Shown here one piece after another: positions 7,595 through 31,276 of a stretch of 64,000 bases of DNA. Made by a program: the position numbers and the translations under genes. Under the pieces are notes generated by a model. The model saw only the letters and a list, made by a program, of their open reading frames with translations, ran no database searches and was not told the origin of the DNA. The stretch lies in contig NZ_JAKQXY010000001.1 in NCBI RefSeq assembly GCF_023509825.1, positions 310,001 through 374,000 on the forward strand, read 5' to 3'. Every line of letters starts with the position of its first letter. The stretch's first letter is position 1. The stretch comes from Spiroplasma attinicola. Lineage in GTDB: Bacteria > Bacillota_I > Bacilli_A > Mycoplasmatales > VBWQ01.

Positions 7595-7638
7595 TATCGT
7601 TATTTAAATAAAAACTCCTAACTACCTACTTTTATTAA

Positions 7639-7776: not shown

Positions 7777-7948
7777 TTTAATTGCTCCTTAATTTAAATC
7801 TTGAATATTGTACCTAGTTTATTATTAATTTTAATTATTGACAAGTACCGGCTGACATTAATAATTGGTAGATTACTTAATCTTAAATTCAAAATAACAT
7901 TATGAAAAAAATAGGATATTAAATTTTTATAAATTAGGGGAGTAATTT

Positions 7949-8176
7949 ATGAAAGAAAAAAGCTATTTTCTTGCACGATATGATAGTAAAACTGATCAAT
8001 GTCTTGGAGTTTACGAAAATTTAGAAGAAGCAATAAAAAAAGTTTACGGTTATACCAAAGGTCATCAAAAATATCAAACTAGTAAAAACTCTATTATTGC
8101 ATCCTACAGCAAGGCAAAAAGAAAAGATGGTTATCGTCGCAGTGCAAGAGGAATTTGATACAAAATTCCACTTTAA
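7949..8176 (+). CDS. Hypothetical protein, 75 aa
   Basis: Begins at ATG 7949 behind GGGGAG and ends W-Y-K-I-P-L when UGA is read as Trp. It is a soluble, basic peptide with no signal. The opening KSYFLARYDSKTDQCLGVYENLEEAIKK is reminiscent of small proteins that sense or modify, but I recognise no family. A decayed second copy lies at about 13.8-13.95 kb, which shows the gene was once duplicated with its upstream region. Confidence 0.6.
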
Positions 8177-8358
8177 TTAATACTAATAATTTAATAATCC
8201 TATAATTTTCTAAAATCCATAGATTTTAAAATAACTATTATTGCTAATTTGAATAGTCTAAATATCTATAAACGCAAAATATTTACGATAATATAATATA
8301 ATTTAATTAGTTAATGTATTTAAATTTAAAAATATTATTGTAAATTGGAGAATTAATT

Positions 8359-9069: not shown

Positions 9070-9135
9070 AATAACAAATTATATAAATTACTTTTAACTA
9101 TATTTGCTTTTTCTCTGATTAATTAGGAGAAAGAT

Positions 9136-12100
9136 ATGAAAGAAAATAATAAAAATACAATCTCAACAGCTGCTGTTCAATATGCAACTGTTGAAAGTTT
9201 AAATACTGAAGCAAGAACACGAGCAAATGCTGATAGTCAAATAAGAACAACTATCCAAGTACTATCTGATGATTACGAAGACTTTAAAGAAAATGGTGGT
9301 GGCAGTGGTGGTGTTTCAAAAGATTATGTTGATACACAAGATGCCCTAAAACAAAACATCACTGACAACACTTTAACAACTACAAACAAAACTATCGTTG
9401 GTGGAATTAATGAATTAATGACTAGCAAACAAGACACACTAGTTGATAATGGAAGCAATCAAAACATCAAAACAATTAATAGTCAATCAATTCTTGGAAC
9501 AGGCGACATCACTATTGAAGGTGGCAGTGGCAGCACAGAATTAGATAACAACATTGAAATCTACGACAATGAAGATAACAACTTTGTCCAATACAAAGCA
9601 ACAGACCTAGACTGAACTGCTGCCAGTGACGAAACACTAACAAGTAAAAGTTATGTTGATCAACAAGACACAACAATCACAAACTCAATTAGTACAAAAG
9701 CTGACACAACTTACGTTGATACACAAGATGCCCTAAAACAAAACATCACTGACAACACTTTAACAACTACAAACAAAACTATCGTTGGAGCTATTAATGA
9801 AAATTTAACATCAATTAGTACAAAACAAAATACTTTAATAGACAATGGTGATAACCAAAACATCAAAACCATCAATGGCACTTCACTACTTGGAACAGGC
9901 GACATCACTATTGAAGGTGGAAGCACAGACCTAGACAACAACATTGAAATCTACGACAATGAAGAGAACAACTTCGTACAATACAAAACAACAAACCTAG
10001 ACTGAACTGCTGCCAGTGATAACTCACTAACAAGTAAAAGCTATGTCGACCAACAAGACACAACAATCACAAACTCAATCAGCACAAAAGCTGACACAAC
10101 TTACGTTGATACACAAGATGCCCTAAAACAAAACATCACTGACAACACTTTAACAACTACAAACAAAACCATTGTTGGTGGAATTAACGAATTAGTAACA
10201 AATAAACAAGATACTTTAGTAGATACTGGAGATACTCAAAACATCAAAACCATCAACGGCACTTCACTACTCGGAACTGGAGACATAGAAATCAGTGTCG
10301 ATGGAAGTTCACCCCTAGAAGATAACATTGAAATCTACGACAATGAAGAGAACAACTTCGTACAATACAAAACAACAAACCTAGACTGAACTGCTGCCAG
10401 TGATAACTCACTAACAAGTAAAAGCTATGTCGACCAACAAGACACAACAATCACAAACTCAATCAGCACAAAAGCTGACACAACTTACGTTGATACACAA
10501 GATGCCCTAAAACAAAACATCACTGACAACACTTTAACAACTACAAACAAAACCATTGTCGGAGCAATCAACGAAAACCTAACATCAATCGGAACCAAAC
10601 AAAACCAAACTGACAATACACTAAATACTACAAACAAAACCATTGTTGGTGGAATTAACGAATTAGTAACTAACAAACAAGATACTTTAGTAGATACTGG
10701 AGATACTCAAAACATCAAAACCATCAACGGCACTTCACTACTCGGAACTGGAGACATAGAAATCAGTGTCGATGGAAGTTCACCCCTAGAAGATAACATT
10801 GAAATCTACGACAATGAAGATAACAACTTCGTACAATACAAAACAACAAACCTAGACTGAACTGCCGCCAGTGATGACTCACTAACAAGTAAAAACTATG
10901 TTGATCAACAAGACACAACAATCACAAACTCAATCAGCACAAAAGCTGACACAACTTACGTTGATACACAAGATGCCTTAAAACAAAACATCACTGACAA
11001 CACTTTAACAACTACAAACAAAACCATTGTTGGTGGAATTAATGAATTAGTGACTAGCAAACAAAACACACTAGTTGATAATGGAAGCAGTCAAAACATC
11101 AAAACAATTAACGGTACTTCACTACTTGGTACTGGAGACATAGAAATCAGTGTCGATGGAAGTTCACCCCTAGAAGATAACATTGAAATCTACGACAATG
11201 AAGACAACAACTTCGTACAATACAAAACAACAAACCTAGACTGAACTGCCGCCAGTGATGACTCACTAACAAGTAAAAACTATGTCGATCAACAAGACAC
11301 AACAATCACAAACTCAATCAGCGCAAAAGCTGACACAACTTACGTTGACTCACAAGATGCCCTAAAACAAAACATCACAGACAACACTTTAACAACTACA
11401 AGCAAAACCATTGTTGGCGGAATTAACGAATTAGTAACTAACAAACAAGACACACTAGTTGATAATGGCGACAACCAAAACATCAAAACTATCAATGGCA
11501 CTTCACTACTTGGCACTGGAGACATAGAAATCAGTGTCGATGGAAGTTCACCCCTAGAAGATAACATTGAAATCTACGACAATGAAGATAACAACTTTGT
11601 TCAATACAAAGCAACAAACCTAGACTGAACTACTGCCAGTGATGACTCACTAACAAGTAAAAGTTATGTCGATCAACAAGACACAACAATCACAAACTCA
11701 ATCAGCACAAAAGCTGACACAACTTATGTTGACTCACAAGATGCCCTAAAACAAAACATCACAGACAACACTTTAACAACTACAAACAAAACCATTGTCG
11801 GAGCAATCAACGAAAATGTAACATCAATCAATACAAAACAAAATATTAATGACAGCACCCTAACAACAACAACTAAAACCATTGTTGGCGGAATTAACGA
11901 ATTAGTAACTAACAAACAAAACACACTAGTTGATAGTGGAAGCAATCAAAACATCAAAACCATTAATGGCACTTCACTACTCGGAACTGGAGACATAGAA
12001 ATCAGTGTCGATGGAAGTTCACCCCTAGAAGATAACATTGAAATCTACGATAATGAAAATAATAACTTCGTACAATACAAAGCAACAGACCTAGACTGAA

Positions 12101-13740
12101 CTGCTGCCAGTGACGAAACACTAACAAGTAAAAGTTATGTTGATCAACAAGACATAACAATCACAAACTCAATCAGCACAAAAGCTGACACAACTTACGT
12201 TGACTCACAAGATGCCCTAAAACAAAACATCACAGACAACACTTTAAACACTGATGATAAAACTGTAGTTGGAGCAATCAACGAATTAAGTGGAACTAAA
12301 ACTTCTTTCACCTATGTTGATAGTCAAATATCTACTAAACAAAACCAAAATGATAGTACTTTAAACACAACATCTAAAACTATTGTTGGAGCTATTAATG
12401 AATTAGTAACTGGCAAACAAGGAACATTAACTTTTCCAACTGGAACTAATCCAGGTAATCCAAGTGCAGGAAATGCTCTTCAACTTGATAGTAATAATAA
12501 TATGTATATTAAAACAGATTCATCTTTAGGTCAAACAGGTAACTTATTATATGCAAATTATTCTACTTTAGGTGATTCAATTGGAACAGTAAAACCATTT
12601 AGTGGTTTAAATACAAATAGTAAAACTATTATTAATGCCATTAACGAAAACCTAACATCAATAGCTACAAAACAAGACACACTAGTTGATAATGGCGACA
12701 ACCAAAACATCAAAACCATTAACGGCACTTCACTACTTGGTACTGGAGACATAGAAATCAGTGTCGATGGAAGTTCACCCCTAGAAGAGAACATTGAAAT
12801 CTACGACAATGAAAATAATAACTTCGTACAATACAAAGCAACAAACCTAGACTGAACTGCTGCCAGTGATAACTCACTAACAAGTAAAAGTTATGTCGAC
12901 CAACAAGACACAACAATCACAAACTCAATCAGCACAAAAGCTGACACAACTTACGTTGATACACAAGATGCCCTAAAACAAAACATCACAGACAACACTT
13001 TAACAACTACAAACAAAACTATCGTTGGCGGAATTAATGAATTAAATACTAATATTGGTACTAAAGTTAATGCTTTAAATAATCAAGTCAATTTTGATGC
13101 TAGTTCTATTGATGCAACAACAGTAGGAATTTTCGTTAAAGCACTAACAAAAAGAGGGACAAGTGCTTATCTTACATTTGATCAAATTAATGCTAAACAA
13201 GATCAAACTGATACAACTTTAACAACTACAGACCAAACTGTTGTCGGTGCTATCAATGAATTAGTAACAAATAAACAAGACACACTAGTAGATACTGGAG
13301 ATACTCAAAACATCAAAACAATTAACAGTCAAAGTTTACTAGGAAGTGGAGATTTAACAATATCTCCTTACATTCCAGGAGAATATAAATACATGCCTTT
13401 ATCAGTAACAACAATGCCTGATGGTTGAGTTAAATATAATCAGATAGCAAATAGACCAATATTATTAAGTCATTTCCTTTCAAATTTTCCTACAGCAGTT
13501 TCTAATCCGTCTTTTGATATTGGAACAAATAATGACTATCAAATAAGTTGAATACCTACTAGTACTCTTGGAGCCCTTAATTTTACAGATAATACAAGTG
13601 ATCCTGCAACAAGTTATGGTTTTGTACTTGTAAAATCACAATTATGACAGTACGACCCTGATGGATCGTTTTCAGCAGCAAGAGCAGAAGAAGAAAAATT
13701 ATTATTAAATGAATTCAAAAATAAAAATATCAATATATAA
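9136..13740 (+). CDS. Giant phage tail-fibre-like repeat protein (1534 aa)
   Basis: One open frame of 1535 codons once UGA is read as Trp; the frame is unbroken from ATG 9136 (AGGAGA upstream) to TAA 13738. An N-terminal stretch with ARTRANADSQI and a glycine-rich hinge (GGGSGG) leads into repeats of about 128 aa (384 bp). Each carries KADTTYVD.QDALKQNI, TTTNKTIVGGINEL, QNIKTINGTSLLGTGDI, an acidic IEIYDNE block and LDW(T)AASD. Eight copies of the last motif lie at 9613, 10003, 10387, 10858, 11242, 11626, 12097 and 12853. A unique C-terminal domain of about 120 aa starts near residue 1411. The KTIVGAINEL and INGTSLLGTGDI motifs are typical of phage tail fibres and baseplate-associated proteins. 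There is no signal peptide. Codons are richer in C than in neighbouring genes. Function inferred: fibrous receptor-binding or adhesive protein. Confidence 0.85.
9613..12855 (+). repeat. Tandem intragenic repeats, unit about 384 bp
   Basis: Successive copies of the LDW motif (anchored on its UGA codon) are spaced 390, 384, 471, 384, 384, 471 and 756 bp. The 471-bp units equal 384 plus 87 bp, an extra 29-aa KQN...TTTNKTIVGGIN subunit, so expansion occurred at two scales. Long stretches are near-identical between copies, favouring recombination and length variation. Confidence 0.85.
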
Positions 13741-13785
13741 TCAACAAATTAACTAAAAACACTATTTTTAATAATGTCCTATTAA

Positions 13786-14048
13786 CTAACATTAATAATT
13801 AGGAGACTAATTAATCTTAAATTTAAAATAACTTCATAAAAAATAAGATATTAAATTTTGTAAATTTAGGAAATAATTTATTAAAGAAAAAATATATTTT
13901 CTTGTACTATGATTAATAAAACCAATTAATGTCTTGAAATTTATAAAAATTAAGAAGCTGACAGTCAAATAAGAACAACTATCCAAGTTCTATCTGATGA
14001 TTATGAAGACTTTAAAGAAAATTGGTGCTGGCAGTAATGGTGTTTTTA
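13786..14048 (+). pseudogene. Decayed fused copy of the 75-aa gene and the tail-fibre gene start
   Basis: Bases 13786-13960 resemble 7852-8030 (upstream region and first third of the 75-aa gene), with the ATG changed to ATT and several frame-breaking changes. They are joined to 13960-14048, which matches 9229-9318 inside the N-terminus of the tail-fibre gene (ADSQIRTTIQVLSDDYEDFKEN). No open frame survives. It marks an old duplication of the block with an internal deletion. Confidence 0.75.
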
Positions 14049-14130
14049 TGACTTTCAGAAGTGAGGGTAATGAATAATCTCGGCTAAAAATATATAAATT
14101 AGAAGAATTGCAATCATAATAAAACTAAAT

Positions 14131-14160
14131 AAAAGGCACTATTAAAAAATAGTGCCTTTT
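14131..14160 (+). terminator. Hairpin terminator before transposase
   Basis: AAAAGGCACTATT / AATAGTGCCTTTT, a perfect 13-bp stem with a 4-nt loop and T-rich 3' side. Because it is symmetrical it could work in both directions. The stem core GGCACTATT also appears in the rplK leader hairpin. Confidence 0.75.
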
Positions 14161-14221
14161 ATATTATTGCTAAATTATACTTATATGTATCTAAATCGAT
14201 TTAGAAAAAGAGGGGAACGCA

Positions 14222-15487
14222 ATGCATTCAATACTTGAAAATCATCTTAATTTTTATGAAAGAAAAAATCAAAATATTTTTAATTATGCATTACTAAGTT
14301 TAAAACAAGAATATGAAAATAAAGATAAAGAAATTTTTAACTCAAAATGAAGAAAAGAAAATGGCTATATACCACATGGAACAAGACAAAGAACATTAAT
14401 AACTATTTTTGGTAAATTAACATATAAAAGACATCGTTATTTAATCTGAAATAAAACTGGTTATCGTTTTGTTTATCTTTCTGACATTGCACTGGGGATT
14501 AAAAAATATCAAAGAATTACAACACATTTGCAAATTAAAATCCTATCATTAATTGCTAAAGGAAAACGCTATCAAGATATTTCCGATTGTTTTCCACACT
14601 TAAATATTACAACTAACACAATTACTAATATCATTAATCGAATTAAACTTGATTCATTAGAAGAAATTACAATGAAAAAAGTTAAGCCAATTAAATTAGA
14701 TCAATATTTATATGTCAACATTGATGATACTTTTTTAAATTTAAAAGAAAATAATAAAAAACAACAATACCGAATCCGAGTAATTTTATTTCACACTGGC
14801 TACGATTTAGAAAAATCAAGACCGAATAAAAAAATCTTAAAAAATTCAAGAATATTTATGTTTTTAAATAAAAAGAATCAATATTATGACAATCAATTAA
14901 TGTTTGAAAAAATTCAAAATCTTGCCAAAACTTTTTATAACAATATTGATAAAATCAAAATAATTATTAGTGGTGACGGTGCATCATGAATTAGAAATTG
15001 TCAAAAATATTGACCTAATAGCATTTATCTTCTTGATCGTTTTCATATGATTCGAAAACTAAGACAATTATTCAATCCTAATAATAAATTAATGCAACCA
15101 GTTTATGAAAACTTGCGAGTAGCATTTTTTAATGGAAAGTATCAGGAAATGATTAAAATTCTATCAAAACCTTGATTTAATGATCAATATAAAATCACAA
15201 AATTAAAAGAATTAAAATATTATTTACAACATAATGAACGAAATCAAGGAATTAGTAATCAAAAATATGATTTTAATATTGGTTGTAGTATTGAAAGTAC
15301 AATTTCTCATCATGTTAAGTGATTATTAGGGTATGGTTCAAAAGCATTTAGTAAAGAAATTTATCTAAAAATTTTAACTTTACATTTTGCTAGTGTTAAT
15401 AAAATTAATATTATTGATTTATTTAAAGAAATTTTTGTTGAACAATGAAACTCTAATTTGCATATTGCATGACAAAAAAATAATTAG
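14222..15487 (+). CDS. UPF0236 / Mbov_0401-like transposase
   Basis: 421 aa, intact when UGA is read as Trp. ATG 14222 follows AGAGGGGAA. The layout is that of the UPF0236 (ISLre2-like, Mbov_0401) family: N-terminal region with SKWRKENGYIPHGTRQR and IFGKLTYKRHRY, a helix-turn-helix-like stretch (AKGKRYQDISDCFPHLNITT), then a catalytic-type domain with NIDDTFLNL, a conserved IISGDGASWIRN and LLDRFHMIRKL, and C-terminal ISHHVKWLLGYGSKAFS. These motifs recur in the second copy at 30.0 kb, at moderate identity, so the two are separate lineages rather than recent duplicates. Proteins of this family occur as transposases of mollicute integrative conjugative elements. No terminal inverted repeats were found by eye. 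Confidence 0.85.
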
Positions 15488-15592
15488 ATTTATAATTTAA
15501 GAGAATTTAAGGTTTATAAAATTATAAAACTATCTACCAAATTTAATAGTCTATCGTTATTTTTATAATATAAAAAAATAAAAAATAAAAAA

Positions 15593-15615
15593 CTTTTTAA
15601 CTATAAGTTAAAAAG
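15593..15615 (-). terminator. Terminator of rpmG-secE-nusG
   Basis: CTTTTTAAC / GTTAAAAAG stem with a 5-nt loop, followed on the minus strand by TTTTTTATTTTTTATTTTTT. It ends the operon that in other Firmicutes continues towards rplK. Confidence 0.85.
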
Positions 15616-15638
15616 TCGATAAATAAATTATATTCAAT

Positions 15639-16265
15639 TTAAGATCCAATTTTTTTACAAGCAACATATTCTACTTTAACTGGAGTAGAACGACCAAAGA
15701 AATCAATATTAACAGTAGCTACACCTTTATCATCATCTAATTGTGAAACTTGTCCTTCATGTCCTTTTAAAGCACCTGAAATAATATGAACATAATCATT
15801 CAATTGAAAATCTCGCTCATCACTTTTATCTTTTTTAACAACTGATTCTTTTTTAGGTTGTTTATTATCACGATGTAACATTGTATTAACTTCTTTTTCA
15901 GATAATGGCAGTGGTTTAATTCCACGACCACTAGAACCAATAAATCCAGTTACACCTGGAGTATTACGAACATCATATCAAGTTTCGTCAGTCATAATCA
16001 TATTAATAAAAATATATCCTGGAAAAGCATTTTTTATTTCGGGCTTTTTATCTTTATTAGTAATAGTTTCTTCAACAATTTTAATATCAAAAATTTTATC
16101 TTTCAAATTTAAAGTTTCAATTTTTTGTTTTAAATCTTCATAAACTCGTCTTTCATGCCCTTTATTACAATTAATAACATATCATTGTGCATTACTTGCT
16201 TGACTTGTTGTTTGATTCTCATTATCATTTACATTTTTGATATCGTGTTCATTTTTTTTATTCAT
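15639..16265 (-). CDS. nusG: Transcription termination/antitermination protein NusG
   Basis: 208 aa with two UGA(Trp) codons, one at the conserved NGN-domain W (A-Q-W-Y-V-I). The NGN domain (about 28-125) contains [48 protein letters not shown]; a charged linker follows; the KOW domain (about 155-208) has LNDYVHIISGALKGHEGQVSQLD. NusG binds RNA polymerase and couples it to the ribosome or Rho-type factors. Start 16265 has GGAG about 14 nt upstream, slightly far. It lies 26 nt after the secE stop. Confidence 0.95.
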
Positions 16266-16291
16266 AATTGTAAAACATCTCCATTTTTTAA

Positions 16292-16744
16292 TTAAGTAAT
16301 TCTAGCTAATCGGAATAAATTAGCCAAAATTAAATTTAGAATTTCAAACAAACCGGCAAAAAAAGCAATAAATAAAACTGTAATTCAAAATTTCTTATTT
16401 AAATCTTTTCTTGGTGTTCATCTAATTCTTCTTACTTCTCTTGATAAATACAAGAAGAAATATTTATGATAAGTTCTTACTTCGCTTCTATAGTAATATT
16501 TTTCTTCTGCTGTTCGTTCTTTTTTTGATTTTTCTCAAATTGCATTCATATCAATTATTTTATTGTCATCAATATTTCGCGGATCAAATTTATCTTGACT
16601 AGGTTTAGAATTTCTAAATTTTAAAGGCTTAACTTTGCGGAAAATATTAAATTTATTTTTTAACAATTCAACTTTTTCACGATTAATATGTTGCTTTTCA
16701 ACTTTTACTTTTTTTTCTGTTGAACGTTTTACTTTTTTTGCCAC
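16292..16744 (-). CDS. secE: Preprotein translocase subunit SecE
   Basis: 150 aa from a GTG start (16744) with AGGAGG 6 nt upstream, the site overlapping the rpmG stop. A long lysine-rich N-terminal extension (about 95 aa) precedes the SecE core: amphipathic REVRRIRWTPRKDLNKK and one membrane helix (about 118-143, FWITVLFIAFFAGLFEILNL). SecE clamps SecY in the Sec channel. The extension makes it longer than the 60-70 aa Bacillus protein, as is common in mollicutes. The gene is complete only if UGA is read as Trp. Confidence 0.9.
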
Positions 16745-20287: not shown

Positions 20288-20899
20288 ATGAATAAAATTT
20301 GACAATTACTATCAAGTACTTTAATTTTGGTTTGTAGCATTAGCAATGTTAAAATCGCTAATCAATCACAAATTGAAATAAAAGAAAATAATTTTAAAAC
20401 TAATAATGAACCAATTAATAATTCTACTTTAAACCATTTTTTAATAACAAATGAAAATTACAACTATAATCTACTAATTAATATTGCTTGACAAAATAAA
20501 ACAAAAACAATAAGTAATACAAATTTAGAATCATCAACATTGAAATTAAATAAATCATTACCAAAAAAGAAAAACCAAAACTTAATCCTTATGACAACTA
20601 TATCAACATTAACAATTAGTTTTTTATTAATCATTATTGTTTTGAAATCTCGATTTAAAAAGGGGATTGGAGTTAAAAAAAACAAAAATGGTAAAAATTC
20701 TTATTATTCGGTAAATAAAAATAAAAACAAAAAAAGTGAAGAAAATACAGTACTAAAACCTTCACGACAAGAAAAAAATATTATTAAAATGCAAAAGAAA
20801 ATTAAAAAATATCAAACTAAAATAAAAAAAGCAAAAAAGATGATGAAAATTAAGAGAAAGGACAATTTTGATGAAAAATCTAATTCCAAAATCAATTAA
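20288..20899 (+). CDS. Membrane protein with external N-terminal part and basic tail
   Basis: 203 aa. An N-terminal signal-like helix (about 5-22), an Asn-rich region, a second helix (about 98-117, LTISFLLIIIVLK) and a strongly basic C-terminal tail (about 118-203). The tail includes SRQEKNIIKMQKKIKKYQ, nearly the same as the end of the VirB6-like protein. The gene overlaps the start of virB4 by 29 nt, indicating coupling. Function unknown; likely part of the channel or its cytosolic assembly. Confidence 0.65.
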
Positions 20900-23558
20900 T
20901 AAAAGCAAACTAACAATTTGGCGAAACATTAGCTTAATTGATTTTTTAATTATTCTTGGATGAATTTCTTTGAGTGGCATGTTTATTTTTGGATTACCAT
21001 TAAAAAATTGAGCAAAAATTTTAGGTATTGTTTTATTAAGCATCTTTGTTTTTCCTTTAATTATTCAAGTACAGCCTGGAATTAAAGGATGAAATGCAAT
21101 TATCTTACTATTTACTCATTGATCAATGGTTAAAATATATAAAAAAAATAATAGTAATGATACTAGTTTATTAGTAGCTTATGATAAAGCTATAGGTGAA
21201 TATTTTGTTCAATCTGAAAAATTTAATGGTAAAAAAAAATTAATTGGCGCTATTAACGTTAAAGGTTTTGATATTACTTTATTAAATCCTAGTGAACAAC
21301 AATTACGATTACAAGATTTACAAGATGCATTAAAATTTACTAACTTTCCGATGACTTTTTTAAAATTAGACAAACCATTAGAATTTAAAAAAACAATTAA
21401 ATATTATCAAGATAAATTACTAAAACTTAAAAGTGATTATGAAAATCAGAAATTAACAGAAGTTGGTTTTTTAGCAAGAAAAAAACAAATTAAAAGTTTA
21501 ATTACAACTTTAGAAAAAGATTTAATAATTACTGATGAAGGTATTAAAACCAAGAAATATTTTTATATTTTTGTTTATGGTAATAATGAAGAAGAGTTAT
21601 TAGAAAATATGACACTCTTAGAAAATAAATTAGTCAATGGAAATTTTATTTGTGAATGATTAAGCAATCTTGAAATAGTTCAAACCTTACAATTAATTTG
21701 AAATCCTTATGCTAATCTCATAACTAAAGAAGAATTTGAAAAAAATAAAGCAAACCTTAGTAATTTATTATCTTTTCAAGAATTCAATTTACATAAAACA
21801 CATTTCATCGCTGATAAACTTTATTATTCAATTAATGGAATTTATGATTATCCATTATTGGCTATTGATTTATGAGGTGCTGTCTTAGCATGTAATGAAC
21901 AAACAATAATTTGAAACATTAATCCAGTTGATGATCAAAAAATGAAAATTGCTTTAAACAAAGCAATTAATAATGCTTTCACTAAACAATTTATGACTAA
22001 ATCTCATATTAATCGTAGTGAAAACGAATATGAACTTAGTGCTTATCAACAATTAGTAGAAGATATTAACGGTTCTAGTGAAGTTATTAAAAATGTTAAC
22101 ATTTTATTTTTAAACTATGGCACTAGTGCTAAAGTATTAAAACAATCACAAATAAGATTAAAAAAAGCTTTAAGAGAACTAGACATGAAAGTTAATCCTT
22201 TGCATTTTCGACAATTAGATGCTTTTAATGCTTTTCTACCCAAAAATTATGATCCTCTAATTTTGAAAATTGGTCGTGAAATGCCTTGTGCCACACTTGC
22301 TGCTTCTTTTCCATTTATGGCTAGTGGTTTAAATGATGAAAAAGGCATGTATCTTGGACAAAGTAATATTTCTAATGCAATCTTATTTGATCCTTTTAAA
22401 TTAAATCATGAAAGAAAAAATCATAATCAAATTATTATTGGTACAAGTGGATCAGGTAAATCATTTACAACAAAGAAAATGATTGCATTTCATCTGAATA
22501 TGGGAAGAAATGTAATTGTAATTGATCCTGAAAGAGAATATAAAAATTTATGTAATTACTATGATGGTCAATGAATTGATACTGGTGATGCTTCAGTTGG
22601 TAAAATCAATCCATTACAAGTATTAGATAATAACTTTAAAGATGTTTCAGATAATAAAGAAAAAAATCACAATAATATTGAAACACTAATGGATGAAGAA
22701 AATTCTGCTCCTGTTTCTAATCATTTACGTTTATTAACACAATGATTTAAAACTTTATACTCTGATTTTAATGATCGAGAATTTAATTTATTAATTAAAT
22801 ATTTAAAAAAATTGTATCAAAAATGAAATATAACTAATCAAGTTAATGTTAACAAATTAAATAATAATCAATTTCCAACAATGACTGATTTTTATAATCT
22901 TTTAATTGCAGAAGACAAAGACAATTCAAACTTACTTTTAAAAGAATTTATTGATGTTATTGGAACAGATTTTTTAAATGATGGTAAATATGAAAACTTA
23001 TGAAATGGTCACACAACTTTAGTTTTTACTAACCAATTAGTTGTTTATGATGTCTTAACTTTATTTGAACAAGATGAAGCTAAAGTAACAGCAGCCCAAT
23101 TACATTTAGTACTAGCAACAATAAAGGCTGAAGTTAAACATAATAGATTTAGAAATGAAAATGAAATCGTTATTATTGTTGACGAAGCACACTTGGCAAT
23201 TGATAAAGATAATCCAGTTGCTTTGAATTTTATGTATCAAATGGTCAAAAGAATTAGAAAATATCAAGGAGCAATTATTATTACAACACAAAATTTAAAT
23301 GATTTTACTGGAACTGAAGAAATCAAAAAGAAAACAACAGCAATGATTAATAATACGCAATATTCTTTAATTTTAAATCTAGCACCGCAAGATTTAGAAG
23401 ATGTTGCTACTTTATACAAAAGTTATGGAGGATTAACTGCAACAGAAAGAGATTACATTGCCCGAGCTGGTAAAGGCGAAGCATTACTTGTTGTTTCAGG
23501 GTATGAACGACATTGTATTACTATTGAAGCTAATAAAACAGAACAAGCAATTTTTTAA
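20871..23558 (+). CDS. virB4: VirB4-family conjugal transfer ATPase (TraE-like)
   Basis: 895 aa in one frame with UGA as Trp. The N-terminus has two or three membrane helices (about 20-90), as in mollicute TraE proteins. The ATPase domain has Walker A IIIGTSGSGKSFTTKK (about 521-536), followed by VIVIDPEREYKNL, and Walker B IVIIVDEAHLAID (about 766-778), then an arginine-finger region ITTQNLNDFTG. VirB4 energises pilus or channel assembly and substrate passage. Start 20871 has AAAGGA 8 nt upstream. It is homologous in kind to the ATPase of mollicute ICEs and Spiroplasma plasmids (family knowledge). Confidence 0.93.
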
Positions 23559-23579: not shown

Positions 23580-24086
23580 ATGCCGAAAATAAATGATGAT
23601 AATTTATATCAAAAATCTAACGAATTAGATCGAAAAGAAGAAATTTTAAATCGAAAATATTTATATTTGAAGGAAACAACTGGAATCTTATATCAAGAAC
23701 ATCTTAATTTAAAAAAAGAAGGTGATTTTTCCAAATCCTTAAAAAGAATTTTTAAATCAAAAACTGATCAAGATAAAAAAATTAAAAATTATAATGTTTT
23801 AAAAAACAAATTTTTAGAACAAGAACAAGAATTTCTTACTGAAACAAGTGATTTTTTAAAAAAAGGAGAAGAACTCAATCGTGAAATAAATCAATTTTTA
23901 GTTAAAGAAAATCAATATTTGAGCAAATCAGTAATTCCTAGTTGAAAAGAAGTAAATGAAAATGCAAAAGATAAAAATGAAGAACTTAAAAAAATTAAAG
24001 AATATTATGAAAAACAAATTGAATTCGAAAATCAAAAAGAAAAGCAATTAGAAAAAACTGAATCAGAATACGAAGTACTATATTAA
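23580..24086 (+). CDS. Coiled-coil protein, 168 aa
   Basis: Starts 21 nt after virB4 behind AGAAAGAG. Nearly the whole chain is charged and helical (Lys, Glu, Asn, Leu), with heptad spacing, no signal peptide and no membrane helix. One UGA Trp (PSWKEV). It opens a run of coiled-coil proteins that fills the gap between the VirB4 and VirD4 genes. Cytosolic structural or substrate-adaptor role is inferred only. Confidence 0.6.
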
Positions 24087-24146: not shown

Positions 24147-24575
24147 ATGCCAAAAAATACTAATAAATCTGAAATCCAAAATCCAACATCGTATGAAGAG
24201 ATAGAACTTATCAATATTAAACCAGAAAATCAAAATCAAGATAACAAAAATCATTCTATTCAATCAAAAGAAGAATTTTTCAAATCATTAAAAGCATTTA
24301 ATTTAGAAGAAAAAATGGAAAACATTCGTAAAAAAGCTGAATTAATTAATGAAAAAAGTGATGAATGAAATAAAATGAACCTTTCTTTAATTAAAGAAAA
24401 TGAAAAATTAAAAAATGAAAATCAAATTGTGGTTAAAAACTATCGAACTTTACTCAATGAAAAGCAAGAATTAGAAGCAGTAATAGCACAATTAAAAAGA
24501 AAATATGAGTTAATCCAGGAAAATCAAAAATTAAAACAAACAAAAGAAAAAATTAATTCAGAATTTGAACGCTAA
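24147..24575 (+). CDS. Coiled-coil protein, 142 aa
   Basis: ATG after AAGGAGG. A polar N-terminal third, then a continuous coiled coil (about 60-142) with the motif IKENEKLKNENQ, which also occurs in the 272-aa protein at the far end of the array. One UGA Trp. Its TAA stop lies inside the stem of the following hairpin. Probably a structural or adaptor protein of the conjugation module; no known family recognised. Confidence 0.6.
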
Positions 24576-24595
24576 TAAAGTAATTTATTAGCGTT
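24568..24595 (+). terminator. Cassette hairpin 1
   Basis: AACGCTAATAAA / TTTATTAGCGTT, perfect 12-bp stem, 4-nt loop, then TTTTATTTTTA. The same hairpin recurs at 25373 and 25733. Confidence 0.8.
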
Positions 24596-24631
24596 TTTAT
24601 TTTTAAAACTAATGAAAAGAGGAACCAAACA

Positions 24632-24814
24632 ATGCCAAATTTATGAGAAAGAGAAAAACAAAAAGAAAGCAAAATCCAACAAGAAAGAGAAAAAGCAGAA
24701 AAATACGACAGAGAAATACAAAGACAAGAACAAGAAAGAGCAGAAAGACAAAGACAAAATCGAGAAATAAATCAAGAAAGAAGAAAAAGAGAAAAAGACG
24801 ATCGACAAAGATAA
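24632..24814 (+). CDS. Array protein 1: K/R/E/Q-rich peptide, 60 aa
   Basis: ATG 24632 lies 9 nt after AGAGG within a leader shared by several array genes (AATGAAAAGAGGA...AACAATG). The product starts MPNLW (Trp from UGA) and continues as an almost pure Lys/Arg/Glu/Gln helix, with no signal and no hydrophobic core. A second frame is also open here because the DNA is purine-only repeat; this frame is preferred for its ribosome-binding site and the shared leader. Function unknown. Confidence 0.5.
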
Positions 24815-24834
24815 AAAAGTTAATATAACATTTC

Positions 24835-24862
24835 AACTTTAATAAATTAATTTATTAAAGTT
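24835..24862 (+). terminator. Cassette hairpin 2 (variant)
   Basis: AACTTTAATAAA / TTTATTAAAGTT, 12-bp stem around TTAA. It has the same geometry as the AACGCTAATAAA hairpins with a diverged base of the stem. Confidence 0.6.
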
Positions 24863-24893
24863 CATCATAAAAATAGAAAGAAGATATCAGTTA

Positions 24894-24980
24894 ATGCCAG
24901 AACCAAAAAAAGATCAAAACAGAACTGCTAAAGAGAATTATGTCAGGCGTAAAAAACAAAAAAATTCTTCAATAAAATAA
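24894..24980 (+). CDS. Array protein 2: basic 28-aa peptide (doubtful)
   Basis: A short frame MPEPKKDQNRTAKENYVRRK followed by eight more residues. It begins with MP like several neighbours but has only a weak AGAAAGAAGA upstream. It could be a decayed array member. Confidence 0.3.
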   Translation: MPEPKKDQNRTAKENYVRRKKQKNSSIK

Positions 24981-25022
24981 TAAAAAGAATGAATTTTTCC
25001 TAGTTCTCGACTTGAAATTTAT

Positions 25023-25139
25023 ATGAAATCAAAAATAAAAATAATTAAATTCATGAAAAAAATTATAAAAATTGAAAAAACAACAAAAAAATCCAAATTT
25101 GAATGAAAAGAATTCAAATTTAAAGATAACTTAAATTAA
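25023..25139 (+). CDS. Array region: Lys/Ile-rich 38-aa frame (doubtful)
   Basis: ATG-started frame with one UGA Trp and no good ribosome-binding site. Its 3' half covers an inverted repeat (AAATTTGAAT 25095-25104 / ATTCAAATTT 25112-25121), which may be the real feature. Possibly non-coding. Confidence 0.2.
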
Positions 25140-25174
25140 TAAAAATTAACACAAAAGAAAAGAGGTATTAAACA

Positions 25175-25348
25175 ATGTGAAATAACGGAAATAGAAGTCT
25201 TAATGATCAACACGAAGAATGAAATAGACAACAAAGAGAAAGAGAACAACAAAGAGAACAAGAAAGACAAAGACGTCAAAGAGAACAACAAAGAGAACAA
25301 GAACGACAAAGACGAGAACGAGAACAAAGACAACACGGACAACGATAA
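25175..25348 (+). CDS. Array protein 3: R/E/Q-rich peptide, 57 aa
   Basis: ATG 25175 preceded by AAAAGAGGTATTAAACA, a variant of the array leader. The start MWNNGNRSLNDQHEEWNR contains two UGA tryptophans, then a Glu/Arg/Gln repeat (QREQ, ERQRR units) runs to the stop. The NG-N-R start resembles the SNGR start of array proteins 4 and 6. Single helix or coiled coil expected; function unknown. Confidence 0.5.
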
Positions 25349-25372
25349 AAAAGAAAAATTAACATAAATCTA

Positions 25373-25400
25373 AACGCTAATAAATTACTTTATTAGCGTT
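25373..25400 (+). terminator. Cassette hairpin 3
   Basis: AACGCTAATAAA / TTTATTAGCGTT, identical stem to hairpin 1, followed by the same TTTTATTTTTAAAAC and then the leader of the next array gene. Confidence 0.8.
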
Positions 25401-25436
25401 TTTATTTTTAAAACGAATGAAAAGAGGAATTAAGCA

Positions 25437-25706
25437 ATGTCAAATGGAAGAGATAAAAACTACGACGAAATTAAAAGACGTCAAAAAGAAGAATTAAGAA
25501 AAACTACAGAAGAAGCAAGACAACGAAGAGAAGAAGCAGTACGACAACAAAAAGAAAGAATTCAAAAAGAAAAACAAGCAAGAGAACAGCAAAAAAAAGA
25601 ACAATATCAAAGAGAACAACAAAGAGAACAAAGAGAAAAAGAAAGAAAAATTATGGAAGCAGCAGCTAGACGAGAAAAAGAAGCAAGAAGAAATATAGAA
25701 AGATAA
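25437..25706 (+). CDS. Array protein 4: K/R/E/Q-rich, 89 aa
   Basis: ATG behind the array leader (AATGAAAAGAGGAATTAAGC). The protein opens MSNGRDKNYDEIKRRQKEE and ends in EKERKIMEAAARREKEARR; both parts have clear counterparts in array protein 6, so the two are paralogues. No signal, no hydrophobic segment. Such single-alpha-helix compositions can bind RNA or DNA or act as spacers; no function is claimed. Confidence 0.55.
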   Translation: MSNGRDKNYDEIKRRQKEELRKTTEEARQRREEAVRQQKERIQKEKQAREQQKKEQYQREQQREQREKERKIMEAAARREKEARRNIER

Positions 25707-25732
25707 ATAACAAAAAACTAATCAAGAATTTG

Positions 25733-25760
25733 AACGCTAATAAAATAATTTATTAGCGTT
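25733..25760 (+). terminator. Cassette hairpin 4
   Basis: AACGCTAATAAA / TTTATTAGCGTT around ATAA, third exact copy of the stem in the array. Confidence 0.8.
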
Positions 25761-25792
25761 TTAAAAAAAATAATGAAAAGAGGAATTAAGCA

Positions 25793-25984
25793 ATGCCAGA
25801 CGAAAAAACAAAACAAAAAATAGAAAGACTTTCAAGAGAAGAAGCAAGCAAACTAAGAGAAGAAGCAAAAAGACGAACAGAAGAGATAAACAAACGAATA
25901 GAGGAAACAAATAGACAAATAAAAGAAGCAAGAGAAAAAAGAGCAAAAAGACAAAGAGACGAACGAAATCGATGAGAACGTTAA
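25793..25984 (+). CDS. Array protein 5: charged helical peptide, 63 aa
   Basis: ATG behind the shared leader AATGAAAAGAGGAATTAAGC. Sequence MPDEKTKQKIERLSREEASK and on is a regular amphipathic coiled coil (I/L every 3-4 residues), less extreme in composition than its neighbours. The end NRWER needs UGA as Trp. Only 40 nt separate it from array protein 6, with no hairpin between. Confidence 0.5.
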
Positions 25985-26024
25985 CAAAAAGAATATAAAA
26001 AACAATGAAAAGAAGAGTTAAACA

Positions 26025-26393
26025 ATGTCAAACGGAAGAAATATAAACTACAACAAAATTGAAAAACAGCAAAGAGAAGAAAAAGTAAGACAAGATATAG
26101 AAGCAGAAAAAGAAGCAAGAGCAAAAAGCCAAAGAGAAAGACAAGAAAAGTATATACAACGATACGAAAAATATAAAAGGGAAAAACGTCAAAAAGAAAC
26201 AAAAAGAATACCTACAGAAAAAGAAAGAAAAATAGCAGAAGCAAAACAAAAAGAGCAAGAAAGAAAAATTCTGGAAAAAGCAGCAATACGAGAAAGAGAA
26301 GAATGACAAAAAAGAATTGAAACAGAAAGAAAATCATTAGAAATAGAAAGAAAAATTAGAGAAAAAGTAGCTCAACAAGAAAAAGAAAGGTAA
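26025..26393 (+). CDS. Array protein 6: K/R/E/Q-rich, 122 aa
   Basis: The leader CAATGAAAAGAAGAGTTAAACA is a variant of the array leader. The start MSNGRNINYNKIEKQQREE and inner KERKIAEAK / QERKILEKAAIREREEW match array protein 4, with the C-terminal block extended. Reading through one UGA Trp gives 122 aa. Highly charged helix; function unknown. Confidence 0.55.
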
Positions 26394-26494
26394 ATAATAA
26401 AAACAAAAAACTAATCCAAAATTTGAAGACTAATAAATTAATCTACTAACATTTATTTTAAAAAAGAAAAACATAATTAAAAAGGAGTCAAAAA

Positions 26495-26770
26495 ATGTCA
26501 AGCGAAAAAGATGATGAAAAAAAAGAAAAAATAACAAAAGTAATTGATCAAGAAATATTAGAAATGAACGATCATCAAATAGAAACAGCAATAAGAGAAC
26601 AAAAAGAGCAAGAAAGAAAAGACAGAGAAAATAAGATTAGAGAAGCAAAAAGAAGCGTAAGAATAAGATCTTTAAGAAAAGATTGAAAAGAACAAGAAGA
26701 AAGAAGAACAAAAAGAGAACAAGAGGAAAAACTAAGACAATTAAGAGAACAATATGAAAACCAAAGATAA
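26495..26770 (+). CDS. Array protein 7: charged helical protein, 91 aa
   Basis: AAAAAGGAGTC provides a strong ribosome-binding site. The N-terminal part (MSSEKDDEKKEKITKVIDQE, then EMNDHQIETAIREQ) is more complex and acidic; the C-terminal half is the usual R/E/Q helix, complete only with UGA as Trp (KDWKEQE). A degenerate hairpin (TAATAAATTAATTTATTA) follows at about 26812-26829. Confidence 0.55.
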
Positions 26771-26863
26771 GAACAAAAAAGATAAATAAAACTAATCAAG
26801 AATTTGAAGACTAATAAATTAATTTATTAACGTTTATTTAAACCAGAAAGAAGGTGCTAACTA

Positions 26864-27112
26864 ATGCCAGATTCATTAGACTTACAAAGAATAGAACAAG
26901 AACAAAGACAAGCAAGAGAAAGAAGAATAAGAGAAGAACAAAGAGAACAAGAAGAAATAGAAGAAAGAAGATTGCTAGCCTTATACGATGAACTAACAGA
27001 GCAAGGATGACCAGACTATGAAGAAAGACAAAGACGAGAAAAAGAAGAAACAAACAAAAAACGAGAAGAAAAATTAAGAAAAATAGAAGAAGAATACGGT
27101 CCAGAACGATAA
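26864..27112 (+). CDS. Array protein 8: charged helical protein, 82 aa
   Basis: ATG after AGAAAGAAGGTG. MPDSLDLQRIEQEQRQARER begins a helix interrupted by a more structured LLALYDELTEQGWPDYEER (Trp from UGA), which breaks the pure repeat pattern and argues that this reading frame is real. Ends EEEYGPER. Function unknown. Confidence 0.55.
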
Positions 27113-27136
27113 ATAAGAAAGGAAGAAAATAAAGAA

Positions 27137-27955
27137 ATGCCAAAAGATGAATACACACTTATGTTAAAAGAAGAAAATCAACAATTAAAAGCAATAAACA
27201 AAAAAATCACAATTAAAACAGAAAAAATAACAAAAGAAAATGAAAAATTAAAAAATGAAAATCAAAATTTACAAAAAGAAATTGATGTTAAGAAAAAACT
27301 AACTGAATTTTTATCGAATAAAATAAAAAGCAATCAACCTTTTGATCAAGAACTTCTAAACTTATTAGAAACAAACTTAAATCTAAAAATGGAAAATAAA
27401 GATTTAGATGAAAAAACAGCACAACTAAAATATGAAAATCAAAATATTAGTGCTTTAATTGCTTCAATTAAAGAAAATAATAATATTAATTTGAAAAAAG
27501 AAATATCTTCTAATCAAAAAGCACCAACAAAAAATCATGAATTAATAGAAGAATGTAAAACTTTAAATAAAGAACAACTAAATTTAAGTAAACAGCTTCA
27601 TTCTGCAAAGCAAAAAAATAAGAATTTAACAAAAACAAATCGAAAAATGAAACCAATCAAGGAATACTATAATCGACAAATTAGTACTTTAATGGGAAAA
27701 GAAATATCTTTTGATGATAAAAACGAAGCAATATTAAAAAAACAAGCAGAATTAAAATCTGAAAAAGAAAATTTAAAAAAAGATATTAAACATTTAACGA
27801 ATGAAAGACAATTTTCCAAATTTTATTCATCACGCTTAAAAAAAGAAAATGACTCTTTAAAAAAAGAAGTTATAAAATTCAAAGATATCTTGTTACCTTT
27901 AGAGAAAAAACAACGAGAAAAATCAGCAATTGATAAAAAAGAATTTGAAATTTAA
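27137..27955 (+). CDS. Long coiled-coil protein, 272 aa
   Basis: Follows array protein 8 by 24 nt with GAAAGGAAG upstream. The full length is coiled coil with several KENEKLKNENQ-type heptads (about 35-60, 85-110), similar to the 142-aa protein at the other side of the array, and no membrane segment. It ends directly before a strong terminator, so it closes the VirB4-side transcription unit. Possibly a cytosolic scaffold of the transfer apparatus; inferred. Confidence 0.6.
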   Translation: MPKDEYTLMLKEENQQLKAINKKITIKTEKITKENEKLKNENQNLQKEIDVKKKLTEFLSNKIKSNQPFDQELLNLLETNLNLKMENKDLDEKTAQLKYENQNISALIASIKENNNINLKKEISSNQKAPTKNHELIEECKTLNKEQLNLSKQLHSAKQKNKNLTKTNRKMKPIKEYYNRQISTLMGKEISFDDKNEAILKKQAELKSEKENLKKDIKHLTNERQFSKFYSSRLKKENDSLKKEVIKFKDILLPLEKKQREKSAIDKKEFEI

Positions 27956-27974: not shown

Positions 27975-28006
27975 ATGAGTTCAATCAAAAATTGAACTCA
28001 TTTTTT
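27975..28006 (+). terminator. Strong terminator after array
   Basis: ATGAGTTCAAT / ATTGAACTCAT, perfect 11-bp stem, 5-nt loop, T run. Confidence 0.88.
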
Positions 28007-28058: not shown

Positions 28059-29933
28059 ATGAAAAATAATCATTATAAAAAACCAGTTTTACTTGGATTA
28101 ATTATTATTCCAATTTTATTTTTTATCTTAGCAACAATTATTGGAATGTTTATTACTTTTAGTAAAAATGGTATTATTTTTGATTTAATAAAATATTGAA
28201 AAAATGTTTTTGGTATTTTCTATTATTGATTATTAGCACTTTTATTAAGTATAGTAATATATTTTTATTTTATTTATTATATCTGCTTTGCTCAAAAATT
28301 TGAACCAAAACTAAAAGCAACAAAATATAAAAATTTTGGTAATGCTAATTGATTAAGTAAGAATGAAATAAATAAATTGTATCCTTTAGTTACTAGTATC
28401 GATAATAAAAATAATAATCATGGTTTTGTTGTTAATAGTAAAAAAACTGGAAATACAGTATTTTATAATCTTAGAACTAATACTCACAGCTTAATCATTG
28501 GTGGTACAGGTAGTGGTAAAACTCAAGGACTAGTTTTACCAACAATTCATATTAATGGAAAAAGTCAAACTAAACCTAGTATGGTTCTGACCGATGTTAA
28601 GGGCGAACTATATCAAATTCAAGGAAAATTTTTGCAAAATCAAGGTTATAATGTCAAAGTTCTTAATTTACGAAATATTAAAGGAAGTATTGCTTGAAAT
28701 CCTTTACAAATGATTTACAATCAATTTAAATTATTCCTATTAACTAATGATGAACAAGAAAAATTACATTTAAAAGTTTTAATTCAATCTGATATTCAAG
28801 ATTTAACTAAAACATTATTTGTTAATAAAAATCAAACTGATCCATTTTGAAATGATAGTGGCGCGTTAATTACTGAAGCTATTATTTTAGGAATATTAGA
28901 AAAAACTGAAATTTTAATTGCTGATGATATTAACGAAAATAATCAAACAATTGAACAATTATTAGAAACATACTTACCTGCTACGAGATTTAATCTATCA
29001 TCAGTTGCAGTTATAATTTCTTTAGAATATGATATGATCGATTGATTTGATGCTTTACCTGAAACAAGTATTGCTAAATTAACAGCAAATCAAATATTAC
29101 AATCAGGATCAAAAACACTAACTAGTATTTTAATGACAATGTCAACAACATTATCAATTTTTAAAAATAACTTTATTCGTAATCTTACTTGTAATAATGA
29201 TTTAGATTTTAATGAATTTATTAATAAGCCAACGGCTTTATTTATTGTTGTGCCTGATGAAAATCAAAATTATTATATTTTTGTTACTTTATTAATTTCC
29301 CAACTTTATAAATTTTTAGTTATTGCAGCAAATAACACCAGCGCTAGTAAATTGCCAAGACCAGTATACTTTTTATGCGATGAATTTGGTAATGTGCCAG
29401 CAATTCCCAATATTGAAATAATGATAACTATTTCTCGTAGTAGAAATATCTTTTTTCAATTAATTATCCAAGATTTACAACAATTAAAAGAAAAGTATGG
29501 TCATGAAAAAGCTAATATTATTTATACTAATTGTAGTTTACATATCTTTTTACAAACAATGGACTTAGAAACTGCTGAGCGCTATAGTAAAATGATTGGT
29601 GAGAAAACAATAATTGAAGTCTCAACTAGTGGTAAAGCTGTTAATAAAGTCAATGGAAAAATTATTAGTTCTTCAAGAATTAATGATAAAGATGATTCAA
29701 GAAGTCAATCTCAAAGCTTAAGAGGACATGTTTTAATTTCAGCGAGTGATTTAATGAAACTACCAGCTGGAGAAGCAGTTATTTTTTATGCTAGAGAAAA
29801 TCCTTTTAGAGCAAATTTAGTTCCATGACATAAAATAAGTTCTAAAAATCCAGAACCAATAGTAATTGATACGGAAGTAAAATTAATTAATTTTGAAAAG
29901 GATTTTTATTACGATATTAAAAAATATTACTAA
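28059..29933 (+). CDS. virD4: VirD4/TraG-family coupling ATPase
   Basis: 624 aa, one frame with UGA as Trp, ATG after AGGAG. Two N-terminal membrane helices (about 9-35 and 52-83) precede an ATPase domain with Walker A GGTGSGKTQGLVLP (about 148-161), the TraG-type VLTDVKGELY, and Walker B YFLCDEFGNVPAIPN (about 436-450), then SRSRNIFFQLIIQDLQQLK, the typical coupling-protein sensor region. It recruits DNA-relaxase complexes to the channel in conjugation. A relaxase partner is not visible in the window. It is transcribed separately from the virB4 unit, after a terminator. Confidence 0.93.
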
Positions 29934-29998
29934 AAAAGTTCTTTTATTCTTACATCCATTAAGGTTATAATATGCCATAAGTGGAGGGGAAATACTAT

Positions 29999-31276
29999 AT
30001 GGGGACTTTTGAGTTACAAACTAACAAAAATGACAATCTAGATTTATTTTTTGATGAATATCAAAAAAATAATTTAATTAAAATTAAAAATGATTTCAAA
30101 TCTTATTTTGAAAAAATTGATCAAGAAATTTTTTTATCATCGTGAAGGAAAAATCGAGGCTACATTCCTGATGGATTTAAATTCAGAACAATTTTAACAA
30201 TTTATGGGAGAATAACATTTAAAAGAAGGGTCTATAAATATTGAAATAAAACAAAATATAACTATGTATTTTTAACTGATAAAAAATTACAAATTGAAAG
30301 ATATAGTAGAATTACTAGTCATTTGAAATTTAAAATTCTTGAGCAAATTGCCACTGGTAAAAGACAAAGAGATATTTGTGATATGTTTACTTGTTCTAAT
30401 CTTACAAGAACAACCGTTAGTAATATTATAAAATCATTTAATTTTCAAGCATCATTTAAAGATGTTACTAAAGATATTGCTAAAGTTAAAATTCCAAAAT
30501 ATCTTTATTTCAATATGGACGAAACATATATTAAATTACGAAAAGATAATAAAATCAACAAATATAGAATTCGACTAGTAACTTTTCATACTGGCTATAA
30601 CACACTTTATTCAACTCAGAAAAGAAAAGTGCTTGCTAATAAACGAGTTTACTTTCAATTAATACCAATTTCAAAAAAAATTAAAACAGTTAAATTTATG
30701 TCTTCGTTAAAAAGAATTGCTAAACAGTATTATTCTAATATTGATGACATAAATGTTATTATTTGTGGTGATGGTGCATCTTGAATTAGAGAAGCAAACA
30801 ATTACTGACCAAATTCTAAATATATTTTGGATAAATTTCATGCAACTCGCTACTTAAAACAAGTTTTTCCAAATAAAAAAAATAAATTAAATTTACAAAG
30901 TTATCAAAATAGTAAAAATTTATTTGAAACTGGTGCATATAATGATTTAATTAATCAATTAAAACAAATTACTCCTAAACCAGGAAAACAAGAAAAATTA
31001 ACTAAAATAATAACTTACTTTACTAATAATGCTATTGGCATTATTAATCAAAAATTAAAATGCAATATTGGTGTTAGTGCTGAAGCTGATATTTCTCATA
31101 TTATCAAATGATTATTAGGTTATGGTTGTAAAGTTTTTAACCATCAAACTTTTAAAAATATGCTTTATTTAAAGACTGCAGAAGTTAATCAGTTAAATCT
31201 TATTAGTTTTTTAAAACAACAAAATCAATTAGCAAGAGAATCTATTAAAAATTTTTATTGAAAAACTATTAACTAA
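29999..31276 (+). CDS. UPF0236 / Mbov_0401-like transposase, second copy
   Basis: 425 aa, intact with UGA as Trp; ATG after GTGGAGGGG, with a TATAAT box at 29966. Motifs correspond one to one to the 14.2-kb copy: SSWRKNRGYIPDGFK, TIYGRITFKRRVYKYW, ATGKRQRDICDMF, NMDETYIKL, VIICGDGASWIRE, ILDKFHATRYLKQ and IKWLLGYGCKVF. The acidic residues of NMDET and GDGAS are the likely catalytic positions (inferred). It lies immediately after virD4, as in mollicute ICEs where such a gene is the terminal transposase. Confidence 0.85.

What the first reader, a model, noticed from the sequence alone, without database searches (positions are those of the whole stretch)
24147..27955. Tandem array of tiny K/R/E/Q-rich genes with recurring leader and hairpin modules inside a conjugation locus
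Between virB4 and virD4 sit at least eight small frames coding for almost purely charged helices. Several share a leader close to AATGAAAAGAGGAATTAAGC just before the ATG, and three share the identical hairpin AACGCTAATAAA/TTTATTAGCGTT after or before the gene. Members 4 and 6 are paralogues (MSNGR..NY.I start, ERKI.E.A end). Two longer coiled-coil proteins flank the array. The pattern looks like gene-by-gene duplication of a leader-ORF-hairpin cassette, unlike any conjugation operon I know. The products could be DNA/RNA-binding peptides, mating-channel spacers or addiction-type products.
Basis: partly seen in the sequence, partly recalled or inferred. Interest (0 to 1): 0.75.

Follow-up and report, generated by a model that had tools for sequence, protein, structure and literature searches.

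The report
Charged-peptide gene array in Spiroplasma secretion locus
Between two core genes of a DNA/protein-transfer machine in an insect-type Spiroplasma lies a private cluster of seven tiny genes for almost purely charged helical proteins, found nowhere else in the data searched; it sits in a cargo slot whose contents change from genome to genome, and its larger neighbours share a C-terminal tail that may be an export tag.

Summary
Window 24147-27955 carries one 142-aa coiled-coil gene (p1), seven tiny K/R/E/Q-rich genes (p2-p8), one doubtful 28-aa frame and a 272-aa coiled-coil gene, with a repeated ribosome-binding leader and a repeated hairpin. GC by codon phase supports translation of p1-p8. 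No other ORF in about 99.8% of the genome resembles p2-p8, and no relative was found in the nearest genomes, plasmids, phages, Pfam or PHROGs. The repeated unit is not leader-ORF-hairpin but [dead copy of p1's 3' end]-hairpin-leader, recurring between otherwise dissimilar ORFs. The site is a variable cargo slot between virB4 and virD4 of a T4SS without an intact Mob_Pre relaxase: 97 bp in S. platyhelix, relaxase plus methylase in an S. citri plasmid, coiled-coil and MazF-fold-like/coiled-coil proteins in sister loci. The longer slot proteins here, and unlinked proteins of those families, share a C-terminal acidic-aromatic tail (SEFER, KEFEI, EEYEF) far above acid-matched controls; p2-p8 lack it. 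Best reading: a fast-evolving T4SS cargo array. Export of the tailed coiled coils is plausible but untested; the tiny helices' function is inferred. Neutral low-complexity expansion remains a serious rival.

The parts
20868..23558 (+). VirB4-type ATPase (ORF opens at TTG 20868; conserved start MKNLIPK just inside); upstream border of the slot
   Evidence: Pfam P-loop_TraG 2.7e-23; 72-78% identity to four sister copies
23580..24086 (+). cc168, K/E/L-rich probably coiled-coil protein ending ...TESEYEVLY
   Evidence: ORF in table 4; C-terminal tail motif; heptad score not above shuffles
24147..24575 (+). p1, 142-aa coiled-coil protein ending ...INSEFER; its 3' end overlaps the first hairpin
   Evidence: codon-phase P 1.2e-6; tail motif; heptad z 2.1
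24568..24595 (.). hairpin h1 with U-tract (terminator-like)
   Evidence: z -5.4
24632..24814 (+). p2, 60 aa, 72% KREQ
   Evidence: codon-phase P 4.6e-6; leader
24835..24862 (.). hairpin h2, two compensatory pairs relative to h1, no U-tract
24894..24980 (+). p2b, 28-aa frame, doubtful or remnant
   Evidence: no significant codon phasing (P 0.29)
25175..25348 (+). p3, 57 aa, 74% KREQ, 28% Arg
   Evidence: codon-phase P 1.1e-9
25373..25400 (.). hairpin h3 with U-tract
25437..25706 (+). p4, 89 aa, paralogue of p6
   Evidence: z 8.8; phase P 2.2e-10
25720..25760 (+). dead copy of p1's 3' end plus hairpin h4
   Evidence: alignment A2
25793..25984 (+). p5, 63 aa
   Evidence: phase P 1.4e-5; charge-pairing z 3.9
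26025..26393 (+). p6, 122 aa; predicted two long helices (8-60, 65-121)
   Evidence: phase P 8.8e-9; AlphaFold2 mean pLDDT 91, pTM 0.39, single sequence
26413..26453 (+). degenerate dead copy of p1's 3' end plus decayed hairpin h5
26495..26770 (+). p7, 91 aa
   Evidence: phase P 3.6e-6
26794..26834 (+). dead copy of p1's 3' end plus decayed hairpin h6
26864..27112 (+). p8, 82 aa, net charge -7
   Evidence: phase P 2.3e-9; charge
27137..27955 (+). cc272, coiled-coil protein ending ...DKKEFEI; weak similarity to the first slot gene of the sister locus L042
   Evidence: heptad z 7.0; E 1e-6; tail motif
27975..28001 (+). separate terminator-like hairpin before virD4
28059..29933 (+). VirD4/TraG-type coupling protein; downstream border of the slot
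   Evidence: Pfam T4SS-DNA_transf 3.2e-53; NCBIfam conju_CD1115

Best explanation
The stretch is a cargo slot of a Spiroplasma type IV secretion locus, and the array is its fast-evolving local content. Shown by sequence: the virB4-virD4 gap is 97 bp in S. platyhelix and holds unrelated genes elsewhere; copies of p1's 3' end, the hairpin and an RBS recur between the array genes. Inferred from that: a coiled-coil gene like p1 seeded the array by repeated local copying. Likely: the products are translated as long charged helices, because GC phasing is consistent in all of p1-p8 and i/i+4 charge pairing exceeds composition-matched shuffles in several. Inferred only: cc168, p1 and cc272 are candidate T4SS substrates recognised by a C-terminal acidic-aromatic tail shared with MazF-fold-like/coiled-coil proteins of the same genus; the tailless p2-p8 are helical partners of that cargo, or cargo variants that lost the tail, rather than structural parts of the channel.
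For: Slot content varies between loci with conserved virB4/virD4. The tail motif [DE][FYW][EQ] in the last 8 residues occurs in 11/29 proteins of families A, B and C against a shuffle mean of 0.6 (0 of 5,000 shuffles reach it), with hydrophobic residues enriched at -3/-4 and acidic ones at -2/-5. Acid-matched: 13/25 versus 13/223, P 2e-8; on G002 members not used to define the motif: 4/10, P 0.003. No intact Mob_Pre and no PF03432 relaxase was found in this genome, only a broken Mob_Pre remnant. VirB4 and VirD4 are intact. Codon phasing, charge pairing z 3.4-3.9 in p4, p5, p6, helix prediction for p6.
Against: p2-p8 lack the tail. No expression or secretion data were available. p4/p6 show no residue-level purifying selection: codon-position differences 30/32/18. 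S. platyhelix keeps the T4SS without slot cargo and without domain A proteins. The ~940-aa exported protein of sister loci is reduced here to 203 aa, so this machine may be altered or failing. The tail was first noticed post hoc. It could be a sorting, stability or assembly tag unrelated to the T4SS.
Confidence: 0.38

Rival explanations
1. Neutral or selfish low-complexity expansion: slippage and unequal recombination between purine-rich repeats and hairpin/RBS modules produced extra frames that happen to be translated but do nothing.
For: Found in one genome only; p4/p6 diverge at codon positions 1-2 more than 3; decayed hairpins, dead p1 ends and the remnant p2b point to ongoing turnover; T-poor DNA keeps frames open by default.
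Against: Each of p2-p8 has its own RBS-like stretch and ATG, consistent GC phasing over eight genes and, in three of them, charge pairing above composition-matched shuffles; one hairpin copy is kept through two compensatory pairs, although with six sequences this is weak (43 of 500 shuffles match).
Confidence: 0.27
2. Nucleic-acid-binding single alpha-helices used in transfer or in packaging element DNA, working like the KER helix of yeast CAF-1.
For: K/E/R-rich helices; p4 +10, p5 +7, p6 +13 net charge; charge-pairing pattern; the CAF-1 KER region is a single alpha-helix that binds DNA without sequence specificity (PMC10335832).
Against: p7 +2, p8 -7, p2/p3 +4, so not uniformly basic; no such gene in the slots of transfer loci that have an intact relaxase.
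Confidence: 0.18
3. The peptides are by-products and the working part is the hairpin array: terminators or RNA-stability elements that grade expression between virB4 and virD4.
For: Three hairpins of about -13 to -16 kcal/mol and one of -8 (all z below -5), two with U-tracts; S. platyhelix also has an inverted repeat with a T-run between virB4 and virD4 (sequence printed).
Against: Two copies are decayed, one intact copy has no U-tract, two junctions lack it, and codon phasing would then be unexplained.
Confidence: 0.09
4. Toxin-antitoxin or immunity peptides, for example small helical antidotes to the MazF-fold-like proteins of the same genome.
For: MazF-fold-like domain A proteins occupy the slot of sister loci and of the second cluster of this genome.
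Against: No domain A gene in this slot; no Pfam, PADLOC or PHROG match for the array members tested.
Confidence: 0.08

Closest known systems
Mycoplasma/Spiroplasma ICE-type conjugation module (Mbov_0395/0396/0397 families)
   Same: pilin-like gene, Mbov_0396-type transmembrane protein, VirB4 and VirD4 in this order
   Different: no relaxase in the slot here; cargo array between virB4 and virD4; chromosomal setting; reduced exported protein before virB4
Legionella Dot/Icm E-block C-terminal signals (PMC5802825)
   Same: glutamate-rich C-terminus read at a coupling complex that contains a VirD4 homologue; here acidic residues at -2/-5 and a hydrophobic residue at -3/-4 in families found in and around a T4SS slot
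   Different: no DotM-like adaptor was looked for; export not shown; shorter tail; absent from p2-p8
Single alpha-helix (SAH, ER/K) domains; CAF-1 KER (PMC10335832)
   Same: K/E/R-rich with i/i+4 opposite charge pairs in p4, p5, p6
   Different: free-standing 57-122-aa bacterial proteins, Gln-rich as well; the SAHs in the papers found are segments of larger proteins
MazF/PemK toxin fold
   Same: the N-terminal domain A of sister slot proteins is closest to MazF structures (Foldseek best E 8e-3, TM about 0.5)
   Different: not in the array itself; fused to coiled coil and C-terminal tail; no sequence match to the family
Integron gene-cassette arrays
   Same: small ORFs separated by hairpins
   Different: plain 12-bp stem with 4-nt loop, missing at two junctions; integrase and attC cores were not searched for

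Membership tests
ICE/T4SS conjugation module (Mbov_039x type) | VirB4, VirD4, pilin-like and Mbov_0396-type membrane proteins | tested here: met
ICE/T4SS conjugation module (Mbov_039x type) | relaxase available for DNA transfer | tested here: not met
   Mob_Pre only as a broken fragment (G000:C1:37791-38036), PF03432 absent; other relaxase families not searched; assembly 94% complete
T4SS effectors with a C-terminal signal | shared C-terminal motif on otherwise unrelated proteins | tested here: met
   cc168, p1, cc272 and sister families
T4SS effectors with a C-terminal signal | the motif is present on the tiny p2-p8 | tested here: not met
T4SS effectors with a C-terminal signal | VirD4-dependent export | not testable with these tools
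   needs experiment
SAH domain | opposite charges paired at i/i+4 beyond composition | tested here: inconclusive
   own score: met in p4 z 3.6, p5 3.9, p6 3.4; p8 2.4; p2, p3, p7 below 2; p4 and p6 are paralogues
SAH domain | monomeric stable helix in solution | not testable with these tools
   AlphaFold2 gives p6 two helices at pLDDT 91 from a single sequence, not proof
Toxin-antitoxin pair | recognisable toxin or antitoxin family among the array genes | tested here: not met
   no match in Pfam, PADLOC, PHROGs for the members tested
MazF fold (domain A of sister slot proteins) | fold match to MazF | tested here: inconclusive
   Foldseek prob 1.00 but best E 8e-3, TM about 0.5, model pLDDT 69
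Integron cassette array | tyrosine integrase and attC sites | not tested
   only the hairpin shape was examined

The most novel reading that the evidence does not exclude
A wall-less bacterium's former conjugation system, having lost its relaxase, works as a protein exporter that reads a C-terminal acidic-aromatic tail; the virB4-virD4 slot is a nursery where coiled-coil cargo genes are duplicated and cut into new charged-helix proteins such as p2-p8.
Probability: 0.15. Interest if true: 0.8.

Novelty: new variant of a known kind. Interest (0 to 1): 0.5.

Why it matters
A study of an ixodetis-group Spiroplasma notes that all but one of its predicted symbiosis proteins lack a signal peptide, implying either another route out of the cell or a function that needs no secretion (PMC13240588); another suggests from expression data that the T4SS is active in the host (PMC8025503). 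A C-terminal tail shared by unrelated proteins and found in and around T4SS slots would give that question a concrete, testable candidate signal. The array itself is a rare case of tiny charged-helix genes arising in place.

Tried and rejected
Homologues of p6 in the 20 nearest genomes (none; composition correction may hide weak relatives), DNA similarity in plasmids and phages (none), Pfam, PADLOC, PHROGs for array members (none), PDB sequence search with the sister-slot domain A and domain C families (none significant). VirB4 in viral contigs: none. An antitoxin reading and an integron-cassette reading were set aside. A promoter after each hairpin was considered: only about 20 nt separate hairpin and RBS, and the promoter scan found no excess over shuffles. 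Frame openness was rejected as evidence of coding.
Full report
Observation. The window lies in an 836-kb assembly in four contigs. UGA is read as Trp: the core genes contain many in-frame TGA codons. GC by codon phase in p2-p8 is about 0.5/0.3/0.1 in the annotated frame, significant in each of p1-p8, absent in the 28-aa p2b and in a 38-aa frame at 25023-25139. The leader is a repeated RBS context, and a close variant precedes virD4 of the second T4SS cluster on contig 2. Arg is dominated by AGA as in the core genes.

Uniqueness. Reading contigs 1 and 2 of the genome (all but 762 masked bases and two tiny contigs) gave no other ORF of 40 aa or more that is at least half K/R/E/Q with at least 10% Glu, apart from a frame overlapping p2 and one acidic, Arg-free 50-aa frame. 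Arg is 15-28% in p2-p8 against a genome mean of 3%.

Repeat anatomy. Aligning the eight junctions shows a module: a dead copy of p1's 3' end (CAAGAATTTGAACGCTAA or a degenerate form), the hairpin, and the RBS. It is recognisable at six junctions and missing at p5-p6 and p8-cc272. In p1 this sequence is coding (SEFER-stop). I infer that p1 or a gene like it is the source; the reverse, p1 having grown into the module, is not excluded. Of six hairpins three are identical in the stem, one has two compensatory changes, two are broken.

Place. The locus has lipoprotein, pilin-like, Mbov_0396-type membrane protein, VirB4 and VirD4 genes. Between virB4 and virD4 there are 97 bp in S. platyhelix (L043); in the MAG's nearest copy (L042) a coiled-coil protein, a protein with a TcdA/TcdB-type glycosyltransferase domain, and three domain A/coiled-coil proteins; in S. 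citri plasmid L114 a DNA methylase-like protein, a membrane protein, an unknown and a Mob_Pre relaxase next to virD4 (the methylase call for L114's first slot gene is from its NPPY-type motif and is my reading, not a database match). So the gap is a variable slot. In this genome only a broken Mob_Pre fragment was found, and no PF03432 relaxase; other relaxase families were not searched.

Tail. Slot coiled-coil proteins end in similar acidic-aromatic tails. Families were then defined by N-terminal domains only: A (18 proteins), B (6), C (5) in this genome and the MAG, none in S. platyhelix. Of these 29, 11 carry [DE][FYW][EQ] in the last 8 residues; 5,000 shuffles of each C-terminus averaged 0.6 and none reached 11; windows further upstream in the same proteins hold it 0-1 times. 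Against other ORFs with equally acidic ends: 13/25 versus 13/223; restricted to MAG proteins not used to see the motif: 4/10, P 0.003. Genome-wide the motif is not clearly enriched at C-termini, so it belongs to these families. Members of one family are related, so counts overstate independence. Domain A models as a beta-rich fold whose best structural matches are MazF, with modest confidence. Domain A occurs only in Spiroplasma genomes that also have VirD4, but all nine genomes of the family have VirD4, so this says nothing independent.

Array products. p6 models as two long helices. Charge pairing at i/i+4 exceeds shuffles in p4, p5, p6 (own score). p2-p8 do not carry the tail; they end in -ER or -QR. 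I therefore do not claim that they are exported. Their role as partners of tailed cargo, or as tailless cargo variants, is inference.

Verdict. Real, local and unusual; a cargo slot of a T4SS with a plausible but untested export signal on the larger members; function of the tiny helices open, with neutral expansion a serious rival.

Noticed in passing
window 20288-20899: The gene before virB4 is 203 aa here but 928-963 aa in four sister clusters; it keeps the start (MNKIWQLL) and a similar membrane-anchor end, as if the large exported middle had been lost (BLAST similarity of the end is weak).
   Followed up: partly
window 50925-51524 and 52186-52788 (-); G000:C1:212717-213190, 213942-214433, 474935-475534: A domain C family found only in this genome among nine family genomes; four of five members end in YER, and the fifth region is interrupted by stops.
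   Followed up: partly
L042 (MAG A83_bin3_2) slot gene 6937-8523 (-): Slot cargo with a TcdA/TcdB-type glycosyltransferase domain, E 1.1e-15; it lacks the tail motif. Named only, not pursued.
   Followed up: no
G000:C2:59162-77019 (L003 and beyond): A second T4SS cluster in the same genome with small coiled-coil genes before virB4 and domain A proteins in its slot.
   Followed up: partly
G000:C1:37532-39127 (-): Broken remnant of another transfer element, 87-90% identical to the MAG's contig 4 element, including its relaxase.
   Followed up: no
window 14222-15487 and 29981-31276: UPF0236-type transposase-like genes flank the T4SS locus on both sides.
   Followed up: no
window 6345-16744: A spiralin-domain gene and a 1,534-aa gene sit between rplA and nusG/secE, genes that are usually neighbours (the usual order is general knowledge).
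   Followed up: no
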